Assembly: GCF_004341365.1 (NCBI RefSeq)
Contig: NZ_SLXH01000002.1
Location: forward strand, 62,001-126,000
DNA length: 64,000 bases
Direction: 5' to 3'
Source of the DNA: Simplicispira metamorpha
GTDB taxonomy: Bacteria; Pseudomonadota; Gammaproteobacteria; Burkholderiales; Burkholderiaceae_C
The notes beneath the pieces were generated by a model that was given only the letters and a program-made list of their open reading frames with translations, ran no database searches and was not told the DNA's origin. Made by a program: the position numbers and the translations under genes. Below, in pieces: positions 6,954-57,890 of this stretch (its first letter is position 1; each line of letters starts with the position of its first letter).

Positions 6954-7264
6954 AGCGTTGGCTCCTGTGCGGACGGGCCAGGCCCATGGGGGGAAAACAG
7001 GGGTGTATTCATGGGGGCATAAAAGCCATGCGCATGGCGTGAATATCAGGGGGAAAGCAGCTTCTGTAACGTTTGGAATCGTATCAGTTTCGCCATGGGT
7101 TTCCAGGCCCTGGGGACGGGCGGCACAAAGCGCATGTGGGGCTGGGTCTGGCCGCCCGGGCGCTTGGCACCGTGGCGGGTATTGCAGCGGTTAATGATTT
7201 GGAATAAAAAGTGCCTTGAAGGCAATGACGGTGGGCGCAATTAGCTATTAAAAAAATAGCAAAA
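6954..7264. other. 311-bp intergenic region upstream of the chemosensory operon
   Basis: No convincing gene is present. The right-hand end (7202-7260) is one copy of the dispersed repeat. The remainder must carry the promoter of the operon that starts at 6953, but I could not pick a convincing -35/-10 pair or a flagellar sigma-28 box. Confidence 0.6.
7202..7260 (-). repeat. Dispersed double-hairpin repeat, copy A
   Basis: Read on the minus strand it begins GCTATTTTTTTAATAGC, continues with TAATTGCGCCC, and ends with CTTCAAGGCAC followed by a T run. It lies between the stop of the AEC gene and the start of the MCP-like gene, both on the minus strand. Its left half is nearly the same as copy H and its right half resembles copy E. 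Confidence 0.8.
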
Positions 7265-8170
7265 TCAGCGCAGCACACCCAGCGCCAATGTCAGGCTGGC
7301 CATGCCCAGCAGCGTTGACAGCGTGACCAGGCCCGCTACATACGGGCCGTTGTAGCCCATGCGTGCGGCCAGCACGTAGCAACTCGAGGCGGTGGGCAAG
7401 GCCGAGAATGCCAGCAGCACCGTGGTTTGCACGGCCTCCAGACCCAGCAGCCGTGCCATGGCCCAGGCCACCAGCGGTTGCAACAGATGGCGAATGCCCA
7501 GCACCGATGCCGACAGCAGCTTGCTGCGCGTGAGCAGCCCGAACTGCATGCCTGCACCCGCTGCCATCAGCCCCAGCGCCAGAGAGGCGGCACTGATGCG
7601 GCCAATGGTGGGCTCTGCCCAGGCCGGAATCCGAAAACCCAGCAAGTTGGCCACCAGCCCTGTGGCCGTGGCCAGAATCAGCGGGTTGCGCAGCAGCTCA
7701 CGGGCAAAGCTGTGCTGGCCCTGGCGTGCCATGGGCCAGACAGCGGCCACGTTGAACAGCGGCACACAGACGCCAATCAGCACCGCAATCAGCAGCAGGC
7801 CCTGGCTGCCTGCCAGGCGCTCGGCCAGCGCCAGGCCAATGAAGGAGTTGAAGCGGAATGCCACCTGGGCGCTGGCCGCATGGTCGCGCGCGTCGATATG
7901 CCGACCCAGCCAGGGCAGGTGGGGCAGGGCATAGGCCAGCGCGATACCGCACACCCCCGACGCCAGCCCGGCCACCATCAGGCCGGAGGCCATGCCCAGG
8001 TCGATGGGGCTTTTGACGATGGACTGGAACAGCAGCACCGGGAAAAGCAGGTAATACACCAGGCTCTCGACGGGTTGCCAGACGGAGCGGTTGAGTGCTG
8101 TGTAGCGGCAGATCAGGTAGCCGCACAGAATCAGGGAGAAATCCGGAAAAAGAAGTTGGGCGTAATTCAC
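7265..8170 (-). CDS. AEC (auxin efflux carrier) family transporter
   Basis: A 301-residue, very hydrophobic protein with about ten predicted membrane segments in two five-helix halves, the usual AEC layout, and close to the normal length (about 310). The N-terminus FPDFSLILCGYLICRY and the late motif FSALPTASSCYVLA are typical of the family. AEC proteins export or exchange small organic acids such as malate or malonate; the substrate here cannot be read. The start is a GTG at 8168-8170 with no strong ribosome binding site visible. It is divergent from the tctC-type gene, 182 bp apart, which hints at a shared carboxylate theme, but this is weak evidence. Confidence 0.85.
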   Translation of the reverse strand: MNYAQLLFPDFSLILCGYLICRYTALNRSVWQPVESLVYYLLFPVLLFQSIVKSPIDLGMASGLMVAGLASGVCGIALAYALPHLPWLGRHIDARDHAASAQVAFRFNSFIGLALAERLAGSQGLLLIAVLIGVCVPLFNVAAVWPMARQGQHSFARELLRNPLILATATGLVANLLGFRIPAWAEPTIGRISAASLALGLMAAGAGMQFGLLTRSKLLSASVLGIRHLLQPLVAWAMARLLGLEAVQTTVLLAFSALPTASSCYVLAARMGYNGPYVAGLVTLSTLLGMASLTLALGVLR

Positions 8171-8352
8171 GGGTGCAGGATGCAGAGCGGTGTTGGCGGG
8201 GCAGCACCAGTGGGTGGTTCATGTTTTTAGGGGGCAGTGGCCGCGTTCAGGGTTTGTCCTGAGCTTGCAGCACCCCAAAAGGATCGGTCTGGCGCAGGTC
8301 TGCACGTAGTATCGACGGCGGTTTCTTGTTACTTTTTCAGGAGTGTTTGCCC

Positions 8353-9315
8353 ATGTACCGTCGAAGCTTGATTGGCCTGGCCGTGGCATTGTCTGCGGGA
8401 GCCGTATTGGCACAGAGCTATCCCAACAAGCCCGTGCGCCTGGTGGTGCCGTTTGCACCCGGGGGCACTACCGACATCATTGCGCGCGTGATGGCCGATC
8501 CGCTGTCGCGGGCGCTGGGCCAGCCGGTGGTGGTGGAGAACAAGTCTGGCGGTGGCGGCATCGTCGGTGCGGCTGAAACGGCCAAAGCCACGCCCGATGG
8601 CTACGCACTGGGCATTGCCACCGTCTCTACCACGGCGGCCAATCCAGCCATCAACACCAAAACTCCCTACAACCCGCTGACCGACTTCACGCCCATCATC
8701 AACATTGCCGCCACGCCCAACATCATTGCGGTACACCCCAGTTTTGCGGCCAAGGACTACGCCAGCTTTCTCAGCGCCGTGAAAAAGGCGCCGGGCCAGT
8801 ATTCGTTTGCCTCGTCAGGCACGGGCGGCATTGCGCACCTGCAAATGGAGCTGTACAAAAACCTCAGCGGCACCTTCATCACCCACATTCCCTACCGGGG
8901 TTCGGGGCCTGCGCTCAACGATACGGTGGCCGGGCAAGTGCCCATCATTTTTGACAACCTGCCCTCTGCGCTGGCTTTCATCAAGGAAAACCGCCTGGTG
9001 CCCATCGTGGTGGCTGCACCAGAGCGCATTGCCGCACTGCCCCAGGTGCCCACCTTCAAAGAGGTGGGGCTGGAGCCCGTGAACCGCATGGCTTACTACG
9101 GCATTGTGGGCCCCAAGGGTTTGCCCAAAGAGGTGGTAGACAAGATCAACGCTGCGGTACGCAAGTCGCTGGAAGACCCCGCCGTGCGCAAGCGCATCGA
9201 AGACACCGGCGCTTTTGTTGTGGCCAATACGCCCGAGCAATTCGGTGCCCAGATCAAAGCCGAGTTCGAGACTTACAAGCGCGTGGTGGAGCAGCAAAAG
9301 CTGCGCCTGGATTGA
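8353..9315 (+). CDS. Tripartite tricarboxylate transporter binding protein (TctC/Bug family)
   Basis: A 320-residue periplasmic binding protein. A signal peptide covers about 1-22 (MYRRSLIGLAVALSAGAVLA then Q). The Bug signature YPNKPVRLVVPFAPGG follows immediately, and later VVVENKSGGGGIVGA and the HIPYRGSGPAL motif are diagnostic. I chose the ATG at 8353 because AGGAG lies at 8339-8343, nine bases ahead; an upstream in-frame start at 8326 would spoil the signal peptide. No tctA or tctB membrane subunits are nearby, so it is an orphan, as is common for the expanded Bug families of Comamonadaceae. The ligand is probably a small carboxylate. Confidence 0.93.
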   Translation: MYRRSLIGLAVALSAGAVLAQSYPNKPVRLVVPFAPGGTTDIIARVMADPLSRALGQPVVVENKSGGGGIVGAAETAKATPDGYALGIATVSTTAANPAINTKTPYNPLTDFTPIINIAATPNIIAVHPSFAAKDYASFLSAVKKAPGQYSFASSGTGGIAHLQMELYKNLSGTFITHIPYRGSGPALNDTVAGQVPIIFDNLPSALAFIKENRLVPIVVAAPERIAALPQVPTFKEVGLEPVNRMAYYGIVGPKGLPKEVVDKINAAVRKSLEDPAVRKRIEDTGAFVVANTPEQFGAQIKAEFETYKRVVEQQKLRLD

Positions 9316-9348
9316 GCCAGCCCACAGCCTGGCCACCAGAGTGCGAGC

Positions 9349-9389
9349 TTGATGTGCGTCAACGTGAGAGGGACATGCCTGCCTATAGT
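9349..9389 (+). promoter_or_regulatory. FNR/ANR-type site and -10 box ahead of the macro-domain gene
   Basis: TTGATGTGCGTCAA at 9349-9362 matches the FNR consensus TTGATnnnnATCAA at 9 of 10 fixed bases. A good -10, TATAGT, lies at 9384-9389, predicting a start near 9396 and placing the site centre at about -41, the class II activator position. This geometry supports a real oxygen- or NO-responsive promoter, although CRP-family sites resemble each other. Confidence 0.6.
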
Positions 9390-9474
9390 GGGTGCAGGCA
9401 CAACCTCCTCGTTGGTGCTCTGGCTTCTGGCACTGCGGCCCTGACGGGGTATTCATCGTAAGAAAAGGCAGACC

Positions 9475-9981: not shown

Positions 9982-10016
9982 TCGCACAGGAGCACTGCCC
10001 CTGGTTTTTTGAAAAT

Positions 10017-10033
10017 AGGCCCGTCAAGGGCCT
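10017..10033. terminator. Probable bidirectional terminator hairpin
   Basis: AGGCCC and GGGCCT pair across a five-base loop, with AAAAT on one side and GTTTG on the other. It lies between two convergent genes ending at 9981 and 10091. Confidence 0.5.
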
Positions 10034-10090: not shown

Positions 10091-11371
10091 TCAGACACTG
10101 CCGAGGTCTTCAGCCCAGGTCAGTGCCTGCAAATGGGCCCAGTTGACTTGGCGGTTGGACAGGTGCAGGTCTTCGGCATAGCGTGCAAAGGCTGCGTCAT
10201 CGCCTGCTTCACAGGCTTTGGCTAAGGCCAGAAACGGGGCGAAGGGGCCGGTGTTGTGCAGCAGCGCATCGACCACGGGCTGCGGCAGTGCAACGGATTC
10301 CATGGCCTTTTCCATGGAGACACCCAGCATGGTGTCGAGCAGCGAGAAAACGCCCACGACAAAAGCGTTGTCGCATTCTTCGGGGGGCATCAGTTCGGCA
10401 GCCAGCAGCTCCATCAGCCTGCCGCGCACCACGGCGGTGGTGCCCACGACAGGGGGCGAACCACCGGCGCGCGAGGTGGTCAACAGCAAGGCGGCCCAGC
10501 GGAACAGCTTTTTCAGGCCCAGGATCATGACCGCATGGCGAAACGAGGTGATCTCGCACGACAGGCCGAACCCCGAAGAGTTGATAAAGCGCAGCAGGTT
10601 GAAAGACAGCGTAGGGTCTTTTTTGAGCAGGTCTTCGATCTCTGCCGTGCTGGCCTGTTTGCGCACCAGGTTGATGAGCTGCACGACCGTCGCTTGCGAT
10701 GGCCGGATGGTGTGTGCTTGCACCAGCGCAGGTTTGGCAAACCAATACCCCTGAAAGAGTCTGACGCCCAGATCCGCCATGAGCTGGTGCTGTTCGGCAG
10801 ATTCGACTTTTTCTGCGATCAGCTGTGCGTTGGTGTGTGCGCGCGAGAACTTCACCAGCGATTCGGCCGTTTCGGGAGCGAAGGTCATCATGTCCAGCTT
10901 GATGAACGCCGCCAGCGGTAGCCACGAAACGTACTGGCGGCGCAGGATTTGCTCGCTGAACGCCAGGCGAAAGCCCTGCTTGCGCAAGCCCTCCAGCGTC
11001 GGGATGCGCCCTTCAATATCTTGCAGCGTGGCCGATTCAGGCAGGGTGGGTACTTCCAGCACCACTTTTTCGGGGTGGATGAGTTCAAGGTGGCCGCCCG
11101 AGAGGCTCTCGTGCGTGCAGTTGATGAAGACCAGCTTTTCGCCTACCAGCGACTCGGTGCCTGCGTAAGACAGCGCGTTGAACAACAGTGCTGCATCGCT
11201 GGCGGCGCTGTGTGCGTCAGATGCCGTGGAGCGGTCGAACAGTTCGTACCCAAAGACGGCCTGGTGTGAGTCCACGATCGCCTGGCGGGCAATCATGGCC
11301 AGATTGTCGGCCTCTGCGGGCCGTGTAGCCAGGAGGGTATCGGGGACTGCTTGCTCGGGTGTACTGGACAT
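10091..11371 (-). CDS. EAL-HDOD signalling protein, paralogue 1
   Basis: A 426-residue cytoplasmic protein. About 25-225 is an EAL-like domain, recognisable from GYELFDR, INCTHESL, FIKLDM and LFQGYWFAKP. About 230-400 is an HDOD domain (VVQLINLVRKQASTAEIEDLL.. LSFNLLRFINSSGFG). The EAL residues needed for c-di-GMP hydrolysis are replaced (ELF for EAL, EVPT for EITE, IAEKVE for IAEGVE), so it is probably a c-di-GMP sensor or protein-binding platform, not a phosphodiesterase. This matches the YuxH-type EAL-HDOD family. It directly follows a close paralogue on the same strand with a 63-bp gap. Confidence 0.9.
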   Translation of the reverse strand: MSSTPEQAVPDTLLATRPAEADNLAMIARQAIVDSHQAVFGYELFDRSTASDAHSAASDAALLFNALSYAGTESLVGEKLVFINCTHESLSGGHLELIHPEKVVLEVPTLPESATLQDIEGRIPTLEGLRKQGFRLAFSEQILRRQYVSWLPLAAFIKLDMMTFAPETAESLVKFSRAHTNAQLIAEKVESAEQHQLMADLGVRLFQGYWFAKPALVQAHTIRPSQATVVQLINLVRKQASTAEIEDLLKKDPTLSFNLLRFINSSGFGLSCEITSFRHAVMILGLKKLFRWAALLLTTSRAGGSPPVVGTTAVVRGRLMELLAAELMPPEECDNAFVVGVFSLLDTMLGVSMEKAMESVALPQPVVDALLHNTGPFAPFLALAKACEAGDDAAFARYAEDLHLSNRQVNWAHLQALTWAEDLGSV

Positions 11372-11434
11372 GGGGGCTACGAAATGGTTTGCCGTTGATT
11401 CTAGGAGCGATGGCGTGATCGTGCCCGTTCGCAG

Positions 11435-12688
11435 TCATTCACCGAAATGGTCGGCCCAAGCCAGGGCTTGCAGGTGGGCGCCGTTGATTTGCTGGCTGGT
11501 CAGTTGCAGGGTGCTGGCTGCGCGGTCAAAGGCAGCATCGTCATTGGACTCGCACGCCCTTGCCAGGGTCAGCAGGTGCCCCAGAACGCCCTCGCCACGC
11601 AGCAATGCGGCTTCCGCGCTGGGAGGCACGCTCAACAGGCCCAGTGCGGTTTCCATGGGCATGCCCAGCATGGCGTCGAGCATGGAGAAAATGCCCACCA
11701 CAAATGCCTGGTCAGCTTCTTCCTGGCCCATGGACTCCAGCGCCAGCAGCTCCATGAGGCGGCCACGCACCACCGCGGTTTGTCCTACGGACGATGGCGT
11801 GCCGCTGGTGCGCGACGTGGTCAGCAGCAAGGCTGCCCAGCGAAACAGCTTTTTCAGACCCATGAGCATGACGGCCTGGCGGAACGAGGTGATTTCGCGG
11901 GCCAGGCCAAAGCCCGAGGAATTGATCAGCCGCATCAGGTTGAAGGCCAGGCCCGCATCCTTTTTGAGCACTTCCTCAATGTCTTCAGTGCTGGCCTGGT
12001 TGCGCACCAGGGTGATCAGCTCCAGGATGCTGGTTTGTGCTGGCGTAATCAGTTTGGCCTGCACCAGCGCCGGGCGTGCAAACCAGTAGCCCTGAAAGAG
12101 CTGCACCCCGTGGCTGGAGACCATGTCGTACTGCTGCGCAGTTTCGACTTTCTCGGCAATCAGGTCAGCGCGCGAGTTCCGGTTGGCGTAGCTGATCAGA
12201 ACCGCCAGTTGGTCGGGGGCCAGCAGCGATAGGTCCAGCTTGATGTAGTCGGCCAGCGGCAGCCAGGCGGCATAGGCCGATTGCAGCACCGTGTGGTTGA
12301 ACGCCAGGTGAAAGCCCCGCGCGCGCAGCGCCGCCAGTGTGGGCATGCGGGTGGCCACTTCTTCAGCGGCGACATGGCCCAGGGGCGGAATCTCCAGCAC
12401 GACCTTGTCGGGGTCTACCAGCTCCAGGTGTCCGCCCACCAGGCTTTCGTGGGTGCAGTTGACGAAGATGAGTTTTTTGCCCACCAGTTCATCGGTGCCC
12501 GCGTGCGAGAGGGCGGTAAATACCAGCGCCACGTCGGTGGCAGCGGTGTGGGTGGGGCCTGAGCGCGAGCGGTTGAACAACTCATAGCCGACAACGGCGT
12601 GCTGCGCATTCACGATGGCCTGACGGGCAATCATGGCCACATTGGTCTGCGGGGTGGCGGGAGACCCGGTAGCGGTGGTGCTCGACAT
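11435..12688 (-). CDS. EAL-HDOD signalling protein, paralogue 2
   Basis: A 417-residue protein with the same plan as its downstream neighbour: a degenerate EAL domain (GYELFNRS, VNCTHESL, YIKLDLS, LFQGYWFARP) then HDOD (ELITLVRNQASTEDIEEVL.. LAFNLMRLINSSGFG). The conserved block ITSFRQAVMLMGLKKLFRWAA is nearly the same in both. I chose the ATG at 12686-12688 because MSSTTATG... parallels the MSSTPEQ... start of paralogue 1; a longer reading frame back to 12820 would overlap the DUF455 gene. Catalytic EAL residues are missing here too. The two genes look like a tandem duplication followed by moderate divergence. Confidence 0.88.
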   Translation of the reverse strand: MSSTTATGSPATPQTNVAMIARQAIVNAQHAVVGYELFNRSRSGPTHTAATDVALVFTALSHAGTDELVGKKLIFVNCTHESLVGGHLELVDPDKVVLEIPPLGHVAAEEVATRMPTLAALRARGFHLAFNHTVLQSAYAAWLPLADYIKLDLSLLAPDQLAVLISYANRNSRADLIAEKVETAQQYDMVSSHGVQLFQGYWFARPALVQAKLITPAQTSILELITLVRNQASTEDIEEVLKKDAGLAFNLMRLINSSGFGLAREITSFRQAVMLMGLKKLFRWAALLLTTSRTSGTPSSVGQTAVVRGRLMELLALESMGQEEADQAFVVGIFSMLDAMLGMPMETALGLLSVPPSAEAALLRGEGVLGHLLTLARACESNDDAAFDRAASTLQLTSQQINGAHLQALAWADHFGE

Positions 12689-12755: not shown

Positions 12756-13559
12756 TCAGCCCTGGAGCAGCCATTGCAATTCGGCTTCTGTGAACCCGGC
12801 CTGGCGGCGTGCGGTTTCATTGAACGGCGGTTTCAAGCGCGGTGCTTCGTAGCGTTGTACCAGAGTTGTGTAGTGGGACTCGGGATGCAGTCCCTCGCGC
12901 TCGCACAGCCAGCGGTACCAGTGGTTGCCGATGGCCACATGGCCTACCTCTTCGTGCAGGATGGTGTCCAGAATGCCAACGGCGGCCAGCGCGTCGGGGG
13001 TGCCCACCTGGCGCAGCTTGCGCTGGATCAGCGGCGTGGCGTCCAGTCCGCGCGCCTCCATGGTGCGCGGCACCAGCGCCATGCGCGCCACGATGTCGTG
13101 CTGCGTTTTCTCGCACATCGTCCACAGGCCCTGGTGCGCCGGAAAATCGCCGTAGTCGTGGCCCATGGTGCGCAGGTGCGCGCGCAGCAGGCCAAAGTGC
13201 TGGGCCTCTTCGGCGGCCACCTGCAGCCAGTCCAGGTAGTAATCGCGCGGCATGCCGCCAAAACGCCAGATGGCGTCCAGCGCCAGGTTGATGGCGTTGA
13301 ACTCGATGTGGGCAATGGCGTGGATGAGCACCGCCCGCCCCGCGTGCGTGGCCGGCGAGCGCCGCGCGACCTCGGTGTGGCGCAGCAGCAGCGGGCGCGC
13401 CGGGTGCCCTGGCAGGGGCGGGCTGTCTGGGGGGGATGCGGGGGTATTTTCTGCTATTGAAAGAGTAGCTGCTTGCGCATACGTAGCAAGCGTTGCAGCC
13501 GCTTTTTCATCAGGGTCGGTCAGGTGCAAGACCTGCAAGGCACGGTGGCGAAGTTCCAT
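12756..13559 (-). CDS. DUF455 ferritin-like protein
   Basis: A 267-residue protein of the DUF455 family, a ferritin-like four-helix fold. The blocks [33 protein letters not shown] and [20 protein letters not shown] provide the repeated Glu...Glu-x-x-His ligands expected for a di-iron site. The function is uncertain; some relatives are annotated as rRNA or tRNA-modification-associated, but I cannot support that here. I place the start at 13557-13559 (MELRHRAL), the usual family start, and not at a longer frame that nearly reaches the divergent gene. Residues about 17-36 ([11 protein letters not shown] region) are encoded by repeat copy B. Confidence 0.88.
13453..13510 (+). repeat. Dispersed double-hairpin repeat, copy B (inside the DUF455 gene)
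   Basis: GCTATTGAAAGAGTAGC is followed by TGCTTGCGCATACGTAGC and AAGCGTTGCAGCC, then a T run. GCTTGC and GCAAGC can pair as the second hairpin. It runs antisense to the host gene and is read through without a stop, encoding a variable linker near the N-terminus. Confidence 0.8.
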
Positions 13560-15547: not shown

Positions 15548-16914
<1,367 letters not shown>

Positions 16915-16923
16915 AATTGCGGG

Positions 16924-20766
<3,843 letters not shown>

Positions 20767-25004: not shown

Positions 25005-25346
25005 ATGAACAAGACCCTTGTCATCGCCTCCCTGATCGCTGCCGCTGCCCTGGCTGCCTGCGGCAAAAAAGAAGAACCCGCTCCTGCTCCCGCACCCGCT
25101 CCCGTGGAAGCGCCAGCTCCCGCACCAGCACCTGCTGCTGAAGCCGCACCTGCCGCTGCTGCTGCTGCTGACGCCGCTGCTGGCGCTGCAAGCGCCGCTG
25201 GTGATGCCGCTCAAGCTGCTGGCAATGCTGCAGCTGGTGCTGCCAACGCTGCTGGCGATGCCGCTGCTGCTGCTGGCGATGCCGCCAAAGCTGCTGCTGA
25301 CGCCGCTGCTGCCGCTGCCGCAGGCGCCGCTTCTGCTGCCAAGTAA
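25005..25346 (+). CDS. Small alanine-rich lipoprotein with periodic polar residues
   Basis: A 113-residue secreted lipoprotein. The signal peptide ends in the lipobox LAAC with Cys19 as the lipidated residue, followed by KKEE. Residues 25-45 are Pro-Ala repeats. From about 50 to the end it is nearly all Ala with Gly, and the few polar residues fall in a regular pattern (D56, S63, D67, N74, N81, D85, D92, D99), spaced 7 or 4. This predicts a long, thin amphipathic helix reminiscent of Lpp-type spacers. Its codon use is unusual for the window (many GCT where neighbours use GCC/GCG), and a strong terminator follows, both pointing to high expression. No function is known to me. Confidence 0.82.
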   Translation: MNKTLVIASLIAAAALAACGKKEEPAPAPAPAPVEAPAPAPAPAAEAAPAAAAAADAAAGAASAAGDAAQAAGNAAAGAANAAGDAAAAAGDAAKAAADAAAAAAAGAASAAK

Positions 25347-27514: not shown

Positions 27515-28090
27515 CTAGAGCGGGGGCGCCAATGGGTGGCGCGGTGGTGCGCCCGTGTCGGCGTGCGCTGGCACGCGCACGGCGGCAATGCGCTGCACAA
27601 AGCGCTCCGGGGCGTGGAGGTAGCCGTTCTCGTAGGCCACCACGCGCAGCCCCGTGCAGGCGGCGATCAGTTCGCCAGGCTGGAGCAAGAAATCAGGCCG
27701 TGCGGGCCGCCCCACGCTGGCGTTGCCGTGGGCAAAGGTTTCGTAGAGGAGTACGCCGCCTTCGGCCACGCTGGCGAGCAGCGTGGGCAGCAGCGGTCGC
27801 CAGAGGTAGTTGGTGACCACTACGGCGCCAAACTGGCGCCCCGCCAGTGGCCAGGGCGCGCCCTCGATGTCGGCCAGGATGGCCTCGCCCACCTCGCTGG
27901 CCGATTGCACGGCCTGCACGTCGCGGTCAATGCCCGTGACCGGGTGGCCCAGCGCCCGGAACCAGCGCAGGTGCCGCCCCTGGCCACAGGCCACGTCCAG
28001 CACGACCGCGCCCGCAGGCACCAGGTGCGACCAGCGCTGCACCCAGTCCGAGGGTGGCGCTGTACAGGCGAGGGGTGGATTGTTTTTCAC
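27515..28090 (-). CDS. Class I SAM-dependent methyltransferase (small)
   Basis: A 191-residue protein with a compact Rossmann methyltransferase fold. Motif I is VVLDVACGQGRHLRWF (about 30-45), motif II VTGIDRD, and the motif IV region VVVTNYLWRPLLPTLL. It resembles TehB-like or rRNA-type small methyltransferases; the substrate is unknown. The start is probably GTG at 28088-28090. No ribosome binding site is visible because repeat copy J occupies the upstream region. It follows the small membrane protein gene on the same strand. Confidence 0.85.
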   Translation of the reverse strand: MKNNPPLACTAPPSDWVQRWSHLVPAGAVVLDVACGQGRHLRWFRALGHPVTGIDRDVQAVQSASEVGEAILADIEGAPWPLAGRQFGAVVVTNYLWRPLLPTLLASVAEGGVLLYETFAHGNASVGRPARPDFLLQPGELIAACTGLRVVAYENGYLHAPERFVQRIAAVRVPAHADTGAPPRHPLAPPL

Positions 28091-28145
28091 TATGATTTTG
28101 GTAGCTGGTTACGCCCTGTGGGCGTGCATTAAAGCCCTGTTTAAT
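28089..28145 (+). repeat. Dispersed double-hairpin repeat, copy J (diverged)
   Basis: ACTATGATTTTGGTAGC is followed by TGGTTACGCCC, GGGCGTGC and AAAGCCCTGTTT. The layout matches the other copies with more changes. It sits between two minus-strand genes, covering the translation start region of the methyltransferase. Confidence 0.6.
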
Positions 28146-28147
28146 GC

Positions 28148-28321
28148 CTAAAAACAGGCCCACACCTGATCGGCCAGCATCACCATGAATTCTGGCTGTG
28201 TGTAGAGCGCAAACACCGCCAGCAGCGCCAGCACAGCCGCAGCGCCAGCCAAGCGCGCCAGCCAGCGTTTGCGTATGCGTTGGCGGCGGGTGGGCGACAT
28301 GGGTGGAATAGCGATAGACAT
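28148..28321 (-). CDS. Small single-pass membrane protein (57 residues)
   Basis: A short gene on the minus strand encoding 57 residues (50 if the internal ATG at 28298-28300 is used). It has a basic N-terminus (SPTRRQRIRKRW), one membrane segment (ARLAGAAAVLALLAVFALY) and a short tail ending FMVMLADQVWACF. The first ATG lies 16 bp after the MFS gene stop, so it is likely to be translated from the same transcript. The positive-inside rule predicts a cytoplasmic N-terminus. It ends just before repeat copy J. The family is unknown to me. The tail's aromatic and hydrophobic pattern looks non-random, supporting a real gene. Confidence 0.6.
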   Translation of the reverse strand: MSIAIPPMSPTRRQRIRKRWLARLAGAAAVLALLAVFALYTQPEFMVMLADQVWACF

Positions 28322-29678: not shown

Positions 29679-31661
29679 ATGGCAGCCAAACCCACCCCCG
29701 CAACCGTCCCTGAATATTCAGAAAACTCCATCCGCGTGCTCAAGGGCCTGGAGCCCGTCAAACAGCGCCCGGGCATGTACACCCGCACCGACAACCCCTT
29801 GCACATCCTGCAAGAAGTGCTGGACAACGCCGCCGACGAAGCCCTGGCCGGGCACGGCAAAAAGATCAAGGTCACGCTGCACGCCGATGGCTCCGTCAGC
29901 ATCGACGACGATGGCCGTGGCATTCCGTTTGGCCTGCACCCCGAAGAAAACGCCCCCGTGATCGAGCTGGTGTTCACCCGCCTGCACGCGGGGGGCAAGT
30001 TTGACAAGGGCAAAGGCGGTGCCTACAGCTTCTCGGGCGGCCTGCACGGCGTGGGCGTGAGCGTGACCAACGCGCTGTCGCAGCGCATGGAAGTGACCAG
30101 CCACCGCGAAGGCCAGGTCGCCCGCCTGGTGTTTGCCGGTGGCGATGTGGTCGAGCCCCTGAGCCTGCGCCCCCAGGCCGAGGGCGACCGCCGCCAGGGC
30201 ACCAGCGTGCGCGCCTGGCCCGATGCCAGCTACTTTGAATCCAGCGCGCTCCCCATGGGCGAGCTGACCCACCTGCTGCGCAGCAAAGCCGTGCTGATGC
30301 CGGGCGTGTCGGTCACGCTCATCAACGAAAAAACCCGCGATACGCAAACCTGGCAATACAAAGGCGGCCTGCGCGACTACCTGATGCAGACGCTGGTCAC
30401 CGACCCGGTGATCCCGCTGTTCGAGGGCGAGGGCTTTGCCGACAGCCAGAACGACAGCTTTGCCGAAGGCGAAGGCGCCGCCTGGTGCGTGGCCTTCACC
30501 GAAGAAGGCGCGCCGGTGCGCGAGAGCTACGTCAACCTCATTCCCACCAGCGCCGGTGGCACGCACGAATCGGGCCTGCGCGATGGCTTGTTCCAGGCCG
30601 TGAAAAGCTTTATCGAGCTGCACAGCCTGCTGCCCAAGGGCGTGAAACTCATGCCCGAAGACGTGTTTGCCCGTGCCAGCTACGTGCTCTCGGCCAAGGT
30701 GCTCGACCCCCAATTCCAGGGCCAGATCAAAGAGCGGCTGAATTCGCGCGATGCGGTGCGGCTGGTGAGCGGTTTTGTGCGCCCGGCACTCGAACTGTGG
30801 CTGAACCAGCACGTCGAATACGGCAAAAAACTGGCCGAGCTGGCCATCAAGGCGGCGCAAACGCGGCAAAAGGCCGGGCAAAAAGTCGAAAAACGCAAAG
30901 GCTCGGGCGTGGCCGTGCTGCCGGGCAAGCTCACCGATTGCGAGAGCCGTGACACGGCCTACAACGAAGTCTTTCTGGTAGAGGGCGACAGCGCCGGCGG
31001 CAGCGCCAAAATGGGCCGCGACAAGGAAAACCAGGCCGTGCTGCCCCTGCGCGGCAAGGTGCTCAACACCTGGGAAGTTGAGCGCGACCGGCTGTTTGCC
31101 AACAACGAGATCCACGACATCTCGGTGGCCATTGGCGTCGATCCGCACGGCCCCCATGACGCGCCCGATTTGAGCGGCCTGCGCTATGGCAAGGTCTGCA
31201 TCCTGAGTGATGCGGACGTGGACGGCTCGCACATCCAGGTGCTGCTGCTGACGCTGTTTTTCCGGCACTTTCCCAAGCTCATCGAGGCGGGCCATGTGTA
31301 TGTGGCCCGGCCACCGCTGTTTCGGGTGGATGTGCCCGCGCGCGGCAAAAAGCCCGCCAGTAAGCTGTACGCGCTGGACGAGGGCGAGCTGGCCGCCATC
31401 CTCGACAAATGCGCCAAAGAAGGCGTGGCGCGCGACAAATGCCAGATCAGCCGCTTCAAGGGCCTGGGCGAGATGAACGCCGAGCAGCTGTGGGAAACCA
31501 CCCTCAACCCCGACACCCGCCGCCTCATGCCGGTGCAGCTGGGCGACCTGGACTTTGCCGCCACCGAGGGATTGATCACCCAGCTCATGGGCAAAGGCGA
31601 AGCCGCCGCCCGCCGCGCGCTGATGGAACTGCACGGCGACAGCGTGGAGCTGGATATTTAA
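29679..31661 (+). CDS. parE: DNA topoisomerase IV subunit B
   Basis: A 660-residue ATPase subunit of topoisomerase IV, which decatenates daughter chromosomes. The GHKL ATPase shows [24 protein letters not shown] and [15 protein letters not shown]. The TOPRIM domain has the catalytic Glu in [31 protein letters not shown] (shown in part) and the DxDxD in [11 protein letters not shown]. Length and the lack of a gyrase-type insert favour ParE over GyrB, as does parC directly downstream. The 68-bp gap between the two genes holds repeat copy F. Confidence 0.96.
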
Positions 31662-31718
31662 GTGTTTTTGGCCTCCAGGCCTTGCCAGATAAGCGCAAGA
31701 AGCTATCAAAAACAGAGC
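31662..31718 (-). repeat. Dispersed double-hairpin repeat, copy F
   Basis: On the minus strand: GCTCTGTTTTTGATAGC, then TTCTTGCGCTTATCTGGC, then AAGGCCTGGAGGCC and AAAAACA. CTTGC...GCAAG forms the second hairpin. It begins right after the parE stop and ends 11 bases before the parC ATG, so it lies within the operon mRNA. Confidence 0.8.
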
Positions 31719-31729
31719 AATTGATTTCC

Positions 31730-36420: not shown

Positions 36421-39117
36421 ATGGATTTGCCGCCGTCTGCACCACCGCCAGCACCTGCGCTGTCGCCATCTGCGCGCGTTTCGCCGTTGTCTGGCGTGGT
36501 GCCGTTGGGCAGCGCGGGCGCGCAGACTGTGGGCGATGCTGGCGATGCAGGTAGCGCAGGGCTGCGCCCGGCGTGGCTGCTGCCGGCTGCGTTGGTGGGT
36601 GGTCTGGCCGGGGCTGCATGGCAGGTGCGCCAGCCGGTGTTGTGGCCGCCCTGGGCCTATGGCCTGCTGGGGCTGGTGGCGGGTGTGCTGGCGCTGGCAC
36701 TGGTGCGTGCGCCGGGGTGGTGGCGGCGCGCCGGGTTGCGGACGGGGGCGGTGGCATTGGCGGCTGCGCTGGCCATGGCCGGGGTGACTGGTTTGCGTGC
36801 GGCGCATTTTGCGGCGCAGGCCCTGTCCCCCGCGCTGGAGGGGCGCGACATCCGCGTTACCGGCACCGTGGTGGCCATGCCCCAGCCCAGCGCCGTGGGC
36901 CTGCGCTTTCGGCTGGCGGTGGAGTCGGCGCAGCTGGCGCCACCGCAGGGCGCGCGGCGCGGTGCTGTGCAATCCCCCTCTGTGGACGCGCCCCAAGGCA
37001 TTGCTGCGGGCGCCACGGCAGACACCACGGCAGATGCCGCCTTGGGCGGGCAGCCAGTGCGCCTGCCCACCCTGATCGATTTGGGCTGGTACCACAGCAC
37101 GCTGTACGGTACAGGCGATGCGGCAGCGCGTCCGGCCCCCGCATTGCGCGCGGGCGAGCGCTGGGCCCTGACCGTGCGCCTGAAAGCACCGCACGGCGCC
37201 CGCAACCCGCACGGCTTTGACTACGAGCTGTGGCTGTGGGAGCAGGGCGTGCAGGCCGTGGGCTACGTGCGCACCGGCGCCCGCGATGTGCCTCCCGTGC
37301 GCCTGGAGGCCACCGCCCAATACCCCGTGGAGCAGGCCCGCCAGTCGGTGCGCGACGCCATCCTGGACGCCCTGGCCGCCCCCGGTGATGGCCCCGGCAG
37401 TGGCCAGGGCGCGCAGGTGGCGGGCGTGGTGGCCGCGTTGGTCACGGGCGACCAGCGCGCCATCGACCGCGCCGACTGGGACGTGTTCCGTGCCACCGGC
37501 GTGGCCCATTTGATGAGCATTTCGGGCCTGCACATCACGCTGTTTGCCTGGCTGGCGGCAGCGCTGGTGCAGTGGCTGTGGCGGCGCTCGGCGCGGCTGT
37601 CGCTGGCAGTGCCTGCGCCGTCTGCGGCGCTGGTGGGTGGCGCAGCGCTGGCGGCGGCCTATGCGCTGTTCAGCGGCTGGGGGGTGCCCGCCCAGCGCAC
37701 CGTGACCATGCTGTGCGTGCTGGCGCTGCTGCGTCTGGCGGGCCTGCGCTGGCCCTGGCCCCAGGTGTGGCTGCTGGCCTGCGCTGCCGTGGTGCTGACC
37801 GACCCGTGGGCGCTGTGGCAGAGCGGTTTCTGGCTGAGCTTTGTCGCCGTGGGGATTTTGTTTGCTACTGATTCAGGAGCTGCCAGCGCACGTCCAGCGG
37901 GCGTTAGAGGTCGATTTATCTTGATGTTGCGTGAGCAGTGGGTGGTCACGCTGGCTTTGAGTCCGCTGGGGCTGCTGCTGTTTGGCCAGATGTCGCTGGT
38001 GGCACTGGGGGCCAATCTGCTGGCGATTCCGTGGGTCACGCTGGTGGTTACGCCGCTGGCGCTGCTGGGTGTGTTGTGGGCGCCACTGTGGCAACTGGCG
38101 GGCTGGGCGGTGCAGGCGCTGGTGGCGTTCTTGCAGCCGCTGGCCAGTGTGCCCTGGGCATCGCTGTGGTTGGCCCAGGCGCCGCTGTGGGCCGGGCTGG
38201 CGGGGGTGCTGGGCGGCGCGCTGTTGGCGCTGCGCCTGCCGTGGCCAGTGCGCGCGCTGGGCCTGCCGCTGCTGCTGCCCGTGCTGTGTTGGCAGCCGCT
38301 GCGGCCCGCGCCCGGCCAGTTTGAATTGCTGGCCGCCGACATCGGCCAGGGCAGCGCCGTGCTGGTGCGCACGGCCCGCCACAGCCTGCTCTACGACGCT
38401 GGCCCGCGCTACAGCCTCGACAGCGATGCCGGCGAGCGCGTGCTGGTGCCGCTGCTGCGCGCGCTGGGCGAGCGCCTGGATGTGCTCATGCTCAGCCACC
38501 GCGACAGCGACCACACTGGCGGCGCGCCCGCCGTGCTGGCCGCCCAGCCCCAGGCGCTGCTCACTGGCTCCATCGCCCCGGAGACGGCACCAGCGGCCTT
38601 GCCACCGGCCCAGCCCTGCGTGGCGGGCCAGCGCTGGCACTGGGATGGCGTGGAGTTTGCTGTGATCCACCCCGCGCAGCCTGCCACGGCCCACACCCCC
38701 GGCAGCGCCCGGCGCCCGCAGACCAACGCGCACAGCTGCGTGCTGCGCATCACTGCTGCCACGGGCGCGGCAGCCCTGCTGGCGGGCGACATCGAGCGCG
38801 CGCAAGAGCAGGCCCTGGTGGCAGCGGGCGCACCACTGGCCGCCGATGTGCTGCTGCTGCCCCACCACGGCAGCAAAACATCGTCCAGCGCAGAGTTTCT
38901 GGATGCCGTGGGCGCGCGCAGCGCCTGGGTGCAGGCGGCTTACCGCAACCGCTTTGGCCACCCCGCGCCCGAGGTGGTGCAGCGCGTACAGGCGCGCGGC
39001 ATGGCGCTGGTGCAATCGGCACACTGCGGCGCGGCCACCTGGTCTTCGACGCAACCGGCGCAGGTGCAGTGCGAGCGCCAACAGCGCGCGCGTTATTGGC
39101 AGCACCTGCCGCCATAG
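36421..39117 (+). CDS. comEC: DNA uptake channel protein ComEC/Rec2
   Basis: An 898-residue inner-membrane protein for DNA uptake in natural transformation. An N-terminal OB-fold/DUF4131 region lies between the first membrane helices (to about 330), then the Competence domain with GVAHLMSISGLHITLFAWL (about 360-380) and many helices, and last a metallo-beta-lactamase domain from about 635 with LAADIGQGSAVLVRT, the metal motif LSHRDSDHTGG and LLLPHHGSKTSSS. Residues about 482-502 (TDSGAASARPAGVRGRF) are hydrophilic, interrupt a membrane region and are encoded by repeat copy G. No other competence gene is in the window. The start is the ATG at 36421. Confidence 0.93.
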   Translation: MDLPPSAPPPAPALSPSARVSPLSGVVPLGSAGAQTVGDAGDAGSAGLRPAWLLPAALVGGLAGAAWQVRQPVLWPPWAYGLLGLVAGVLALALVRAPGWWRRAGLRTGAVALAAALAMAGVTGLRAAHFAAQALSPALEGRDIRVTGTVVAMPQPSAVGLRFRLAVESAQLAPPQGARRGAVQSPSVDAPQGIAAGATADTTADAALGGQPVRLPTLIDLGWYHSTLYGTGDAAARPAPALRAGERWALTVRLKAPHGARNPHGFDYELWLWEQGVQAVGYVRTGARDVPPVRLEATAQYPVEQARQSVRDAILDALAAPGDGPGSGQGAQVAGVVAALVTGDQRAIDRADWDVFRATGVAHLMSISGLHITLFAWLAAALVQWLWRRSARLSLAVPAPSAALVGGAALAAAYALFSGWGVPAQRTVTMLCVLALLRLAGLRWPWPQVWLLACAAVVLTDPWALWQSGFWLSFVAVGILFATDSGAASARPAGVRGRFILMLREQWVVTLALSPLGLLLFGQMSLVALGANLLAIPWVTLVVTPLALLGVLWAPLWQLAGWAVQALVAFLQPLASVPWASLWLAQAPLWAGLAGVLGGALLALRLPWPVRALGLPLLLPVLCWQPLRPAPGQFELLAADIGQGSAVLVRTARHSLLYDAGPRYSLDSDAGERVLVPLLRALGERLDVLMLSHRDSDHTGGAPAVLAAQPQALLTGSIAPETAPAALPPAQPCVAGQRWHWDGVEFAVIHPAQPATAHTPGSARRPQTNAHSCVLRITAATGAAALLAGDIERAQEQALVAAGAPLAADVLLLPHHGSKTSSSAEFLDAVGARSAWVQAAYRNRFGHPAPEVVQRVQARGMALVQSAHCGAATWSSTQPAQVQCERQQRARYWQHLPP
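37864..37926 (+). repeat. Dispersed double-hairpin repeat, copy G (inside comEC)
   Basis: GCTACTGATTCAGGAGC is followed by TGCCAGCGCACG, then GCGGGCGTTAGAGGTC and GATTTATCTTGATG. The core and tail match copy H well (AGCGCACG; TTTTGATG). It reads in the same direction as comEC and encodes a hydrophilic loop of about 20 residues. Confidence 0.8.
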
Positions 39118-40901: not shown

Positions 40902-40941
40902 TGGTGATGGGCGACGCTGGGCGTGGGCCCAGCAGGCGCCT

Positions 40942-41001
40942 GTTATCTTTTTGATAGCTGCTCGCGCTTATTCAGCAAGCGTTTGAGCCTGTTTTGACTA
41001 T
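40942..41001 (+). repeat. Dispersed double-hairpin repeat, copy D
   Basis: GTTATCTTTTTGATAGC is followed by TGCTCGCGCTTATTCAGC, then AAGCGTTTGAGCC and TGTTTTGACTATT. CGCTT and AAGCG pair as the second hairpin. It lies between the methyltransferase and dusC genes, both on the plus strand, and is the cleanest copy in the window. Confidence 0.85.
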
Positions 41002-41033
41002 TTATTACCCATAGCCCCGGTGGGCACCGTCCC

Positions 41034-47281: not shown

Positions 47282-48163
47282 TTAATCTGCGCTACGCGCC
47301 AGACCCAGCTGTTGTGCGTGGTACGCCAGGTGGTCGGCCATGAAGCTCTGGATGAAGTAGTAGCCGTGGTCGTAGCCCGCGTGGCGGCGCAGGGTGAGCG
47401 GCTGGCCGATGGCGGCGCAGGCGGCCTCGAAGGCTTCGGGCTGCAGTTGCTGCTGGGCCAGAAAGTTGTCGCTCAGGCCCTGGTCGATCAGGATGCCGCC
47501 GGGGTAGGGCACGTGCGCTTGTGCGGCCATCAGCGCGCTGGCGTCGTGCGCCTGCCAGGCGCTGGCATCGTTGCCCAGGTAGCCGCTGAAGGCTTTGCGG
47601 CCCCAGGCGCACTGCGAGGGCGCGGCAATCGGCGCAAAGGCCGACAGGCTCTGGAAGCGCCCCGGGTGGCGCAGCGCCAGCGTGAGCGCGCCGTGGCCAC
47701 CCATCGAATGGCCAAAAATGCCCAGGCGATCGCCGTCGATGGGCTGCGTGGCTGCCAGCAGCGGCAGCAGTTCGTGCAGCACATAGCTTTCCATGCGCCA
47801 GTGCGTGGCCCACGGCGCCTGCGTGGCATCGAGGTAAAAGCCTGCGCCCATGCCAAAGTCCCAAGCGTCGGCTTCGCCCGCCACGCCCGCGCCGCGCGGG
47901 CTGGTGTCGGGGGCGATCAGCGCCAGGCCCAGCGCGGCGGCCAGGCGCTGGGCACCGGCCTTGGTGGCGAAGGTGTCTTCGGTGCAGGTCAACCCCGCCA
48001 GGTAGAGCAGTGCGGGCACCTGCGCACCCGCCAGCGCTTGCGGCGGCAGGTACAGCGCAAACTGCATGGGCAGGCCGATTTCACGCGAGGCGTGGCGGTA
48101 AAAGCGCTGAACGCCGCCAAAACAGGCGTGTTCGCTGCGCAGTTCCAGAGCATCTGAAGTCAT
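47282..48163 (-). CDS. frmB: S-formylglutathione hydrolase
   Basis: A 293-residue esterase of the glutathione-dependent formaldehyde pathway; it splits S-formylglutathione to formate and glutathione. The nucleophile motif is GIFGHSMGGHGAL; the oxyanion and cap regions read LLYLAGLTCTEDTF, DTSPRG and DFGMGAGFYLDAT; the charge-relay His is in YDHGYYFIQSF. I chose the ATG at 48161-48163 because a longer frame would run through repeat copy H. It is the downstream partner of frmA on the same strand. Confidence 0.95.
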   Translation of the reverse strand: MTSDALELRSEHACFGGVQRFYRHASREIGLPMQFALYLPPQALAGAQVPALLYLAGLTCTEDTFATKAGAQRLAAALGLALIAPDTSPRGAGVAGEADAWDFGMGAGFYLDATQAPWATHWRMESYVLHELLPLLAATQPIDGDRLGIFGHSMGGHGALTLALRHPGRFQSLSAFAPIAAPSQCAWGRKAFSGYLGNDASAWQAHDASALMAAQAHVPYPGGILIDQGLSDNFLAQQQLQPEAFEAACAAIGQPLTLRRHAGYDHGYYFIQSFMADHLAYHAQQLGLARSAD

Positions 48164-48166
48164 GGT

Positions 48167-48224
48167 GCTATTTTTTTGATAGCTGCTAGCGCACGTCTTC
48201 TGCGAGTTTGACATTATTTTGATG
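48167..48224 (+). repeat. Dispersed double-hairpin repeat, copy H
   Basis: GCTATTTTTTTGATAGC is followed by TGCTAGCGCACG and TGCGAGTTTGACATT, then ATTTTGATG. It starts three bases ahead of the frmB start codon and lies within the frmA-frmB operon gap. Its first half equals copy A almost exactly; its tail resembles copy G. Confidence 0.85.
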
Positions 48225-48263
48225 TGCAATCCCTTGCAGGGCGTGCGCTATGCGCTATGGTTT

Positions 48264-50850
<2,587 letters not shown>

Positions 50851-53788: not shown

Positions 53789-53810
53789 TATTTGCCTTCA
53801 GTCGCGGTAA

Positions 53811-55607: not shown

Positions 55608-55663
55608 GGTGGCGCAGGCAATGCGGGCATGCGACCCGGCAACGCCAGGCATGGCACGGCTGC

Positions 55664-55722
55664 ATCATATCTTATATAAGACATAAGACAAATTGGCGCG
55701 GCACGAAAATCAACGGTAGAAT
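55664..55722. promoter_or_regulatory. Back-to-back promoters of the GntR gene and mdh with a palindromic operator
   Basis: A perfect palindrome, TCTTATATAAGA (55670-55681), overlaps a tandem ATAAGAC repeat (55676-55689). On the minus strand it lies exactly between TTGTCT (55686-55691) and TATGAT (55664-55669), which are 16 bases apart, so a bound repressor would block the GntR promoter. On the plus strand TTGGCG (55693-55698) and TAGAAT (55717-55722), 18 bases apart, form the likely mdh promoter, with the operator just upstream. Confidence 0.6.
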
Positions 55723-55818
55723 CGGCGGCTGTTTGCGGGGCACATGTTGCTGGTAACAGGCGCAGGTGGCAACCGCTGCACCCCTCCCTGTTTTTCTTCA
55801 CTTCCTGGAGTTTTCACC

Positions 55819-56805: not shown

Positions 56806-56829
56806 ACGCGCCTGACAGCGCAGGTTGCC

Positions 56830-56847
56830 CGGATGGTGAGCCATCCG
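56830..56847 (+). other. Hairpin between mdh and the CitE-like gene
   Basis: CGGATGG and CCATCCG pair across a short loop 25 bases after the mdh stop. A T-rich stretch comes only 20 bases later, so it may partly terminate mdh transcription or stabilise the mRNA end. Confidence 0.4.
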
Positions 56848-56900
56848 TTGCAATTTGCGCTGCCCCTTTTTCCTCTCTTTTTGCCTGCGCTTTTGATGCC

Positions 56901-57890
56901 ATGACCCATCCCCGCGACGTTCTTTTGGGTGCCCAAGCGCAGGCAGGCTTCCTGCCCGTCTGTGATCATTACAGCGGCGTGGAAGTGCGCATGCGCAAAA
57001 GCCTGCAATTGCAGGCCGAAATGACCGAAGAATTCGGCACCTGCGTCTTTGATGTCACCCTCGACTGCGAAGACGGCGCCCCCGTCGGTGCCGAGGCGCA
57101 GCACGCCGCCCTGGTAGCGGCCCTGGCCCGCGATGCCGCCCCCGGCGCCCGTGTGGCAGCCCGCGTTCACCCCGTCGATCACCCCGCTTTTGCCAACGAC
57201 ATCGCCACCATCGTGGGCGAGGCTGGCCACCGGCTGTGCCACATCATGCTGCCCAAGGTCGAGTCGGTGGACGACGTACTTTTGGCTGAAAAAGCCCTGC
57301 AAGCCGCGTCCGCCGGGCGCCTGCCGCTACATGTTTTGATTGAGTCGCCCGCTGCCGTACACCGTGCCTTCGAGATTGCCGCGCACCCGTCGGTGCAAAG
57401 CATGAGCTTTGGCCTGATGGATTTTGTCTCGGCCCATGGCGGTGCCATTCCAGCTTCGGGCATGACATCTGCCGGGCAGTTCACGCACCCGCTGGTGGTG
57501 CGTGCCAAGCTTGAAATTGCCTCGGCCTGCCATGCCCATGGCAAGGTGCCGTCGCACTGCGTGGTCACTGAGTTCAGCGATACCGCTGCCATGCAGTCAG
57601 CCGCCCACCGCGCCGCCTTTGATCTGGGCTACACGCGCATGTGGAGCATCCACCCCGCGCAGATCCGCCCCATTCTGGCGGCCTTTGCACCCGCCCAGAA
57701 TGAGATCGAGTCTGCTGCAAAAATCATAGCTGCTGGCGCAGGTGCAGATTGGGCTCCCATCAGTTTTGAGGGTGTATTGCACGACCGTGCCAGCTACCGT
57801 TATTTCTGGCAGGTGCTGGAGCGCGCCCACCAAACCGGGCAAGCGTTGCCAGTTGCGGTACAACCCTGGTTTGCGCCCACCTGTTCCTGA
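56901..57890 (+). CDS. CitE-like HpcH/HpaI family aldolase/lyase
   Basis: A 329-residue TIM-barrel protein related to citrate lyase beta subunit and malyl-CoA lyases. Landmarks: [12 protein letters not shown] with the metal-binding Glu/Asp pair, [28 protein letters not shown] with the catalytic Glu, and [13 protein letters not shown] with the second metal ligand. No CitD/CitF partners are near, so it is probably a stand-alone lyase acting on a malyl-CoA or citramalyl-CoA type substrate; its place after mdh fits C4-acid metabolism. Residues about 271-290 ([13 protein letters not shown]) overlap repeat copy I. Confidence 0.88.
57713..57770 (+). repeat. Dispersed double-hairpin repeat, copy I (inside the CitE-like gene)
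   Basis: GCTGCAAAAATCATAGC is followed by TGCTGGCGCAGG, then GGGCTCCCATCAG and TTTTGAG. The core ATAGCTGCTGGCGCA matches the family exactly; the tail is weaker. It reads in the same direction as the gene and keeps the frame open. Confidence 0.6.

What the first reader, a model, noticed from the sequence alone, without database searches (positions are those of the whole stretch)
7202..57770. A dispersed ~55-60 bp double-hairpin repeat present ten times in 64 kb
Copies A-J share the plan: GCTAT, A/T-rich spacer, ATAGC; then TGCTnGCGC; a short loop; AAGCG-like; then a tail like TTGAGCC and TTTTGA. The second hairpin keeps pairing with different bases in different copies: GCTTGC/GCAAGC (B), CTTAC/GTAAG (C), CGCTT/AAGCG (D), CTTGC/GCAAG (F). 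This compensatory change points to selection on folded RNA or single-stranded DNA. Both orientations occur. Roughly one copy per 6 kb would mean hundreds per genome. No transposase is nearby, as for REP/MITE-type elements moved in trans.
Basis: partly seen in the sequence, partly recalled or inferred. Interest (0 to 1): 0.75.

Follow-up and report, generated by a model that had tools for sequence, protein, structure and literature searches.

The report
Genome-wide DNA motif, not hairpin repeat
The bacterium carries hundreds of copies of one DNA motif that, at the places tested inside genes, arises and fades in place, much as the marks do that some bacteria use to recognise their own DNA during uptake; it does not look like a jumping repeat or a folded RNA.

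Summary
The repeat is real and abundant: 527 genome matches to ATAGCTGCTNGCGC with up to one mismatch, against 6 for the reversed control; a profile scan that ignores the core gives 188 copies in 864 kb. Base pairs do not co-vary in 188 copies (first hairpin z -2.9, second +1.9). No two of 126 copies exceed 79% identity. Three copies inside two genes (coaBC- and mnmE-like) show no length difference in 21, 22 and 22 genus genomes, so they arose by substitution, not insertion. A RAYT gene lies beside element-like DNA in many genomes. But three sister genomes keep it while nearly devoid of the motif, and two motif-rich genomes give no match to it. Orientation is neutral, spacing more even than chance, 99 of 126 copies intergenic, six inverted pairs exactly 80 bp apart. 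These are published hallmarks of DNA uptake sequences (PMC1626085). Best explanation, about even odds: a long uptake-sequence-like motif kept by a trans-acting recogniser. Uptake is untested; a chromosomal binding site is the main rival.

The parts
7193..7268 (-). element copy, core with 2 mismatches (ATAGCTAATTGCGC)
   Evidence: profile scan score 42.7
13445..13520 (+). element copy (GTAGCTGCTTGCGC)
   Evidence: score 26.0; called divergent intergenic by my crude gene caller
16847..16922 (-). element copy, exact core, close to the start of the next gene
   Evidence: score 49.3; context
20302..20377 (-). element copy inside a coaBC (dfp)-like gene, antisense
   Evidence: score 33.4; 0 length difference in 21 genomes
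19543..20766 (+). coaBC (dfp)-like gene that hosts the coding copy (name is my reading of the protein, no family search)
28081..28156 (+). element copy, degenerate core
   Evidence: score 29.8
31651..31726 (-). element copy, one core mismatch, intergenic
   Evidence: score 49.9; context
37856..37931 (+). element copy (GGAGCTGCCAGCGC) inside the comEC frame
   Evidence: score 38.5
36421..39117 (+). comEC (Competence, PF03772) frame, DNA-uptake channel family; hosts a copy
   Evidence: PF03772 match at G000:C2:99438-100238 = window 37438-38238; ORF
40934..41009 (+). element copy, exact core, intergenic
   Evidence: score 51.3; context
48159..48234 (+). element copy, exact core; left half of an inverted 80-bp pair, between convergent genes
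   Evidence: score 32.2; pair; context
48203..48278 (-). right half of the inverted 80-bp pair
   Evidence: score 16.5; pair
57706..57781 (+). exact core with poor flanks, inside a gene; doubtful copy
   Evidence: not over score 15 in the non-core scan

Best explanation
The element is a double-stranded DNA recognition motif of about 65 bp (AT tract, core ATAGCTGCTNGCGC, a degenerate inverted half about GSGCTGGAGGC, then AT tracts about TTTTG and AAA). By extrapolation it is present about 800 times per genome, and it is created and maintained in place. The most likely agent is biased uptake and recombination of self DNA: it works like the USS of Haemophilus or the DUS of Neisseria, with a competence receptor preferring fragments that carry it. 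Shown: abundance, origin by substitution at three coding sites, neutral orientation, even spacing, inverted pairs, strong core, near-loss in one clade. Inferred: that one trans-acting recogniser maintains the sites. Not shown: that this recogniser is a DNA-uptake receptor.
For: In-place origin: one site in a coaBC-like and two in an mnmE-like gene have 0 net length difference in 21, 22 and 22 genomes (own included; 21 of the 24 genomes with a coaBC match and 22 of the 26 with an mnmE match were used, partial or weak matches left out), with scores from 55 to -30, 39 to -47 and 40 to -57. Protein sequence at mnmE site 2 is less like G000 (0.36-0.71) than the rest of the protein (0.78-0.87). Strong core in copies chosen without it: A, G, C at positions 2-4 in 188 of 188, GCGC 0.95-0.99. 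Orientation neutral: 275/252 genome-wide, 27 sense / 31 antisense between co-directional genes, no link with GC skew. 99 of 126 copies intergenic where 88% is coding by my caller. Spacing CV 0.76 against 0.89-0.91 for three nulls, P 0.010, 0.006, 0.004; six inverted pairs all exactly 80 bp apart. Clade G299/G311/G318 is under threshold at all three coding sites (coaBC only eroded in two of them) and nearly devoid of the core (16, 15, 19 hits, controls 4, 2, 4), while 20 of the 23 other genus genomes have 129-527. The published USS/DUS hallmarks are largely the same (PMC1626085, abstract and passages). comEC matches in 287 of 299 family genomes, including, by hand check, all 40 with at least 20 exact cores.
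Against: No uptake or competence data; comEC is near-universal, so its presence does not discriminate. In motif-depleted G299 comEC gives one long tblastn match (query 122-897 of 898; stops not checked; G318 and G311 gave no comEC match in the DNA fetched). Density (1 per 4.6 kb) is below the published about 1 per kb. The site is far longer than USS or DUS and partly palindromic. Singly mismatched cores outnumber exact ones in G294 (167, 91), G217 (175, 108) and G262 (144, 64) and equal them in G015 (391, 392). Site states follow the tree with only 2-3 changes in 19 genomes, which plain inheritance could give. The protein at mnmE site 1 is not less conserved than the rest (0.67-1.00 against 0.77-0.85). 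Two short-distance spacing measures are weaker (fraction under 1 kb: P 0.086, 0.036, 0.020; under 2 kb: 0.024, 0.008, 0.002). In 7 loci compared with motif-free G177 the interval differs by +67, +42, +23, -8, -19, -54 and -71 bp: no constant insert, but indels at intergenic sites are not excluded. Element-like DNA lies in fixed register beside the RAYT in at least 14 of 29 motif-rich genomes.
Confidence: 0.5

Rival explanations
1. Binding sites of an intracellular chromosome-organising or topology protein, each kept by selection on the cell, as proposed for some BIME/REP functions.
For: Even spacing, preference for convergent intergenic regions (31 against 14.8 expected by length, p 5e-5) and avoidance of divergent ones (10 against 25.6), dyad-like shape and fixed 80-bp inverted pairs, tracts that switch between TTT and AAA, as expected if DNA shape matters.
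Against: Turnover at single sites within the genus and, at mnmE site 2, a cost in amino acids are hard to explain by selection on each of about 800 sites; no association with GC skew; near-loss in one whole clade.
Confidence: 0.25
2. REP-like family spread by the RAYT of the genome (REPtron/TIRtron), now old and decayed.
For: RAYT (NF047646 85 bits, cut-off 80) with an element on either side in inverted orientation; element-like DNA in fixed register after the RAYT stop in at least 14 of 29 genomes with 20 or more exact cores against 2 of 18 with fewer; REP-like location bias; 80-bp inverted dimers like REPINs; slight excess of similar copy pairs over shuffles (105 against mean 59, max 102).
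Against: No near-identical copies in G000 (max 0.79) or G015 (max 0.80); no insertion at three coding sites; RAYT present in motif-depleted G299, G311, G318 and in G177 with 0 exact cores; G270 and G256 motif-rich without a match, G095 and G196 with only weak ones. The RAYT flank grades in score like the coding sites, so it may be one more site that evolved on the conserved ATCAAA..ATAGC of the RAYT end.
Confidence: 0.17
3. A structured RNA or single-stranded DNA double hairpin kept by compensatory change.
For: Copies fold better than dinucleotide shuffles on average (DNA mean z -1.0); weak excess pairing at 14:24 (z 3.4) and 9:29 (z 2.5) in G015.
Against: No usable consensus structure; P1 z -2.9, P2 z 1.9, P3 z -1.7 in 188 copies; orientation neutral to transcription; no Rfam match in the window or in four loci.
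Confidence: 0.04
4. Transcription terminators at gene ends.
For: Near stop codons (median 7 bp at convergent ends) and enriched between convergent genes.
Against: 27 sense against 31 antisense between co-directional genes, 25 of 126 inside genes, 10 in divergent regions.
Confidence: 0.04

Closest known systems
Uptake signal sequence (USS) of Haemophilus influenzae and other Pasteurellaceae
   Same: Many in-place sites, strong core with flanking AT tracts, no orientation bias, more regular spacing than random, some inverted close pairs, coding copies without gaps (as stated in PMC1626085, abstract and passages; ours).
   Different: Core 13-14 bp within a motif of about 65 bp with a degenerate inverted half; about 1 per 4.6 kb; AT tracts on both sides; uptake untested.
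DNA uptake sequence (DUS) of Neisseriaceae
   Same: Abundance, neutral orientation, inverted pairs; here the motif is limited to one family in the sample.
   Different: Different and much longer sequence; no receptor known here.
REP / REPIN with RAYT, including TIRYT or TnpA_Y1 subclass 2.1 (PMC3733652 passages; PMC6006769 sections 12 and 20 and passages)
   Same: Imperfect palindrome, mainly extragenic, inverted dimers, an RAYT beside element-like DNA; RAYT ends in many genomes carry GGGGTCAG and GGGGACAC, which fit the GGGGWSAS motif of TIRYTs.
   Different: No recent copies, in-place origin at coding sites, not tied to RAYT presence. Subclass of our RAYT not determined; PMC6006769 section 20 reports no REP-like sequences near subclass 2.1 genes.

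Membership tests
DNA uptake sequence (USS/DUS) | high genomic over-representation of a short consensus | tested here: met
   527 against 6 control; 188 copies in 864 kb
DNA uptake sequence (USS/DUS) | sites arise in place, not by insertion | tested here: met
   0 length difference at three coding sites in 21/22/22 genomes; intergenic sites unresolved
DNA uptake sequence (USS/DUS) | no orientation bias, spacing more regular than random, some inverted close pairs | tested here: met
DNA uptake sequence (USS/DUS) | more perfect than singly mismatched cores | tested here: inconclusive
   met in G000 (300 against 227), equal in G015, not met in G294, G217, G262
DNA uptake sequence (USS/DUS) | competence machinery present | tested here: inconclusive
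   only comEC tested: in all 40 motif-rich genomes by hand check, but in 287 of 299 overall
DNA uptake sequence (USS/DUS) | preferential uptake of DNA that carries it | not testable with these tools
   needs an uptake assay
REP/REPIN mobilised by RAYT | RAYT gene flanked by the repeat | tested here: met
   both sides in G000; downstream side in at least 14 of 29 motif-rich genomes
REP/REPIN mobilised by RAYT | family of copies derived from one another (near-identical copies, empty sites) | tested here: not met
   max identity 0.79 in 126 copies; only a slight excess of similar pairs; no gap at three coding sites
REP/REPIN mobilised by RAYT | repeat tied to RAYT presence | tested here: not met
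   G299/G311/G318 have the RAYT and almost no motif; G270, G256 the reverse
REP/REPIN mobilised by RAYT | GT[AG]G tetranucleotide at the hairpin foot | not tested
   not searched for systematically
Structured RNA (Rfam-type) | consensus structure with compensatory base changes | tested here: not met
   Rfam none

The most novel reading that the evidence does not exclude
The first DNA-uptake-sequence system outside Pasteurellaceae and Neisseriaceae: a Comamonadaceae-type family marks its genomes with a 65-bp dyad-like uptake motif, sometimes rewriting conserved proteins to host it. Natural losses of the recogniser (G299/G311/G318, perhaps G177) would make the unknown receptor findable by gene-content comparison.
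Probability: 0.45. Interest if true: 0.9.

Novelty: new variant of a known kind. Interest (0 to 1): 0.77.

Why it matters
Uptake sequences are described, as far as I know, in two families only, and why some competent bacteria mark their own DNA is an old open question. A third, independent case with genus-level gains and losses would let the receptor and the drive be tested comparatively. Even if it is a chromosomal binding site, a motif kept at hundreds of places and able to grow inside conserved genes is unexplained. In the papers library no text holds the core in any of six spellings, and searches joining Comamonadaceae, Burkholderiales or Acidovorax with uptake sequences, intergenic palindromic repeats or RAYT/REP gave no paper; one on transformation, Acidovorax and comEC listed a single unrelated paper. 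Subscription journals are mostly not in that library.

Tried and rejected
Double-hairpin RNA: rejected after alignment, RNAalifold, mutual information and shuffles. The first covariation tests used copies chosen by the core, which froze one arm; they were repeated on copies chosen without the core, with the same outcome.

RAYT as the maintainer: first looked convincing, later weakened. The 14 of 29 is a lower bound: where the frame runs into the element the scan missed it (G222 and G292 show an element-like copy there).

Replication-strand bias: place listings looked one-sided; the listing shows that the printed places are a partial subset, and GC-skew tests were negative.

comEC as the discriminating gene: present almost everywhere, and matched in G299.

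Rfam: none. No covariance model was built, since no consensus structure appeared.

Empty sites in relatives at about 83% identity mostly did not align. The G255/G071/G177 trio gave shared positions between the two close genomes and no clean new insertion.

Script faults and dropped rows: one search stopped with a file error after printing the three loci. A best-match flag dropped matches; one search replaced 47, searches replaced 22, one search was not repeated. Of 189 hits over score 15 one with 12 core mismatches was dropped (188). RAYT loci in which my motif search failed (L084, L133, L141; L350-L352) are missing from those tables. In 29 copies from six genus relatives the highest pair identity was 0.92; orthologous loci and both strands of one palindromic copy are among them. 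The 40 motif-rich genomes were counted by hand. Gene names coaBC, mnmE and gltB are my reading of sequences.
Full report
What is there. The window holds ten element copies by a profile scan that ignores the core, plus one doubtful core at 57706-57781. In the whole genome (3.78 Mb, 68 contigs) the core ATAGCTGCTNGCGC has 527 matches with up to one mismatch against 6 for the reversed pattern; 300 are exact. In 864 kb (40 fetched stretches plus the window), 189 places exceed profile score 15 against 3 in reversed sequence; 188 remain after one with a poor core is dropped. That is one per 4.6 kb, about 820 per genome by extrapolation.

Anatomy. With position 0 at the A of ATAGC: an AT-rich left part with a frequent GCTAT-like stretch at -12 to -8; the core with A, G, C at 2-4 in 188 of 188 copies and GCGC (10-13) at 0.95-0.99; a variable 14-24; G25 (0.93), T29 (0.86), about GAG.C at 31-35; an AT tract at 39-41, mostly TTT, AAA in about a fifth; a second tract at 48-50. 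The 3' part resembles a degenerate inverted copy of the core, and copies fold somewhat better than shuffles (DNA mean z -1.0).

Structure is not what is conserved. RNAalifold predicts two pairs only. Strong dependence exists only between neighbouring columns, such as AA/GG/TT at 23-24. Pairing in the proposed stems is no better than expected from column composition (P1 z -2.9, P2 z 1.9, P3 z -1.7). In G015 pair 14:24 reaches z 3.4 and 9:29 z 2.5, a weak trace. Rfam has no match in the window at gathering thresholds or in four loci at E up to 1.

Placement. Of 126 copies with at most one core mismatch, 99 are intergenic, 25 inside genes, 2 overlap gene ends, where 88% of the sequence is coding by my crude gene caller. 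Convergent regions hold 31 against 14.8 expected by length, divergent ones 10 against 25.6; sense and antisense between co-directional genes are 27 and 31. No link to GC skew. Spacing has a lower CV than three random models (0.76 against 0.89-0.91; P 0.010, 0.006, 0.004; the fraction under 1 kb is weaker, P 0.086, 0.036, 0.020), and six inverted pairs lie at exactly 80 bp, all in the + - order.

Origin. Among 126 copies the highest pair identity is 0.79, among 73 copies of G015 0.80. The number of similar pairs in G000 is slightly above shuffles that keep 8-base blocks (105 against a mean of 59, maximum 102); in G015 61 against 42, maximum 72. The decisive test is in coding DNA: one site in a coaBC-like gene (window 20302-20377) and two in an mnmE-like gene show zero length difference in 21, 22 and 22 genomes of the genus, own genome included (24 and 26 of 26 had a match; partial or weak ones were left out), while the profile score runs from 55 to -30, 39 to -47 and 40 to -57. 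Protein identity to G000 at the site is 0.54-0.85, 0.67-1.00 and 0.36-0.71, against 0.81-0.91, 0.77-0.85 and 0.78-0.87 in the rest, so only the first and third sites are less conserved than their proteins. On a tree of 19 genomes built without the sites, states change at least 2, 3 and 3 times at score 12. In the pair G255/G071, about 93% identical, element-like DNA stands at the same place in 10 of 11 comparable loci by my reading; one is shortened and a twelfth locus had no comparable interval. At seven loci compared with G177 (0 exact cores) the interval differs by +67, +42, +23, -8, -19, -54 and -71 bp: no constant insert, yet indels at intergenic sites are not excluded.

RAYT. The genome has one RAYT at E <= 1e-20 (255-aa frame, NF047646 85 bits) with an element on either side in inverted orientation. 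In many genomes its ends carry GGGGTCAG and RGGGACA.AT.AAA..ATAGC, like the GGGGWSAS ends of TIRYT/subclass 2.1 (PMC6006769 section 20; PMC3733652 passages). In at least 14 of 29 genomes with 20 or more exact cores, and 2 of 18 with fewer, element-like DNA follows in fixed register downstream. But RAYT homologues at E <= 1e-20 are in 282 of 299 family genomes, while 117 of 299 have any exact core. The clade G299/G311/G318 keeps a 74-75% identical RAYT with 16, 15 and 19 core hits (controls 4, 2, 4), while 20 of the 23 other genomes have 129-527 and G312, G304 and G320 have 42, 50 and 84. G270 and G256 are motif-rich without a match, G095 and G196 with weak ones. The RAYT flank of the depleted clade also scores low, and the others grade. 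The register is therefore best read as one more site grown on a pre-existing half site; this is inference.

Distribution. Of 299 family genomes, 40 have at least 20 exact cores (hand count). In 150 genomes of the order (4 of them of the family), no genome outside the family has more than 3. Named RAYT relatives include Acidovorax, Extensimonas, Simplicispira, Giesbergeria, Polaromonas, Rhodoferax and Variovorax; that the family is Comamonadaceae is inferred from this. No call named the organism itself.

Comparison. PMC1626085 (abstract and passages) lists for USS and DUS: no significant orientation bias, somewhat more regular spacing than random, some closely spaced opposite pairs, preference for non-coding DNA with many coding copies, a very strong consensus, and, for USS, origin by substitution shown by gap analysis. 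All are matched here except the strength of the consensus, which is mixed. Differences are the length, the inverted half and the lower density. I hold that it works like an uptake sequence with about even odds; membership is not claimed, since uptake is untested.

Open points. Why changes come in blocks of two or three bases, why pairs sit at exactly 80 bp, and what recogniser was lost in the G299 clade.

Noticed in passing
G000 blocks C2b, C3, C5 (e.g. window 48159-48278): Six inverted element pairs, all exactly 80 bp anchor to anchor and all tail to tail; one half then reads TTTT where the other reads AAAA, which may explain the TTT/AAA alternation among singlets (inference).
   Followed up: partly
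element positions 6-8, 14-15, 23-24, 39-41: Alternative states differ by two or three adjacent bases at once (GCT/TAT/TTA, TT/CC, AA/GG/TT, TTT/AAA) with few intermediates; also between orthologous sites of G255 and G071 (TGC against GAA).
   Followed up: partly
3' flanks of RAYT genes in L074-L103 and L132-L151: Recurrent RAYT ends like AATTGGGGTCAGATTCCAATTA and RGGGACAYATCAAA..ATAGC across the family; the gene often lies beside a gltB-like gene (my reading).
   Followed up: partly
window 36421-39117: comEC lies in the window and itself hosts an element copy at 37856-37931.
   Followed up: no
window 25104-25340: GCTGCTGC-type repetitive stretch.
   Followed up: no
window 10300-11940 and 1156-1997: A 300-bp repeat (76% alike) and a threefold 179-bp repeat, probably paralogous or duplicated coding DNA.
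   Followed up: no
G262:C1:605051/605076 and 1523207/1523232; L124 about 17838: Element copies whose two arms are inverted core copies a few tens of bases apart: a near-fully palindromic form.
   Followed up: no
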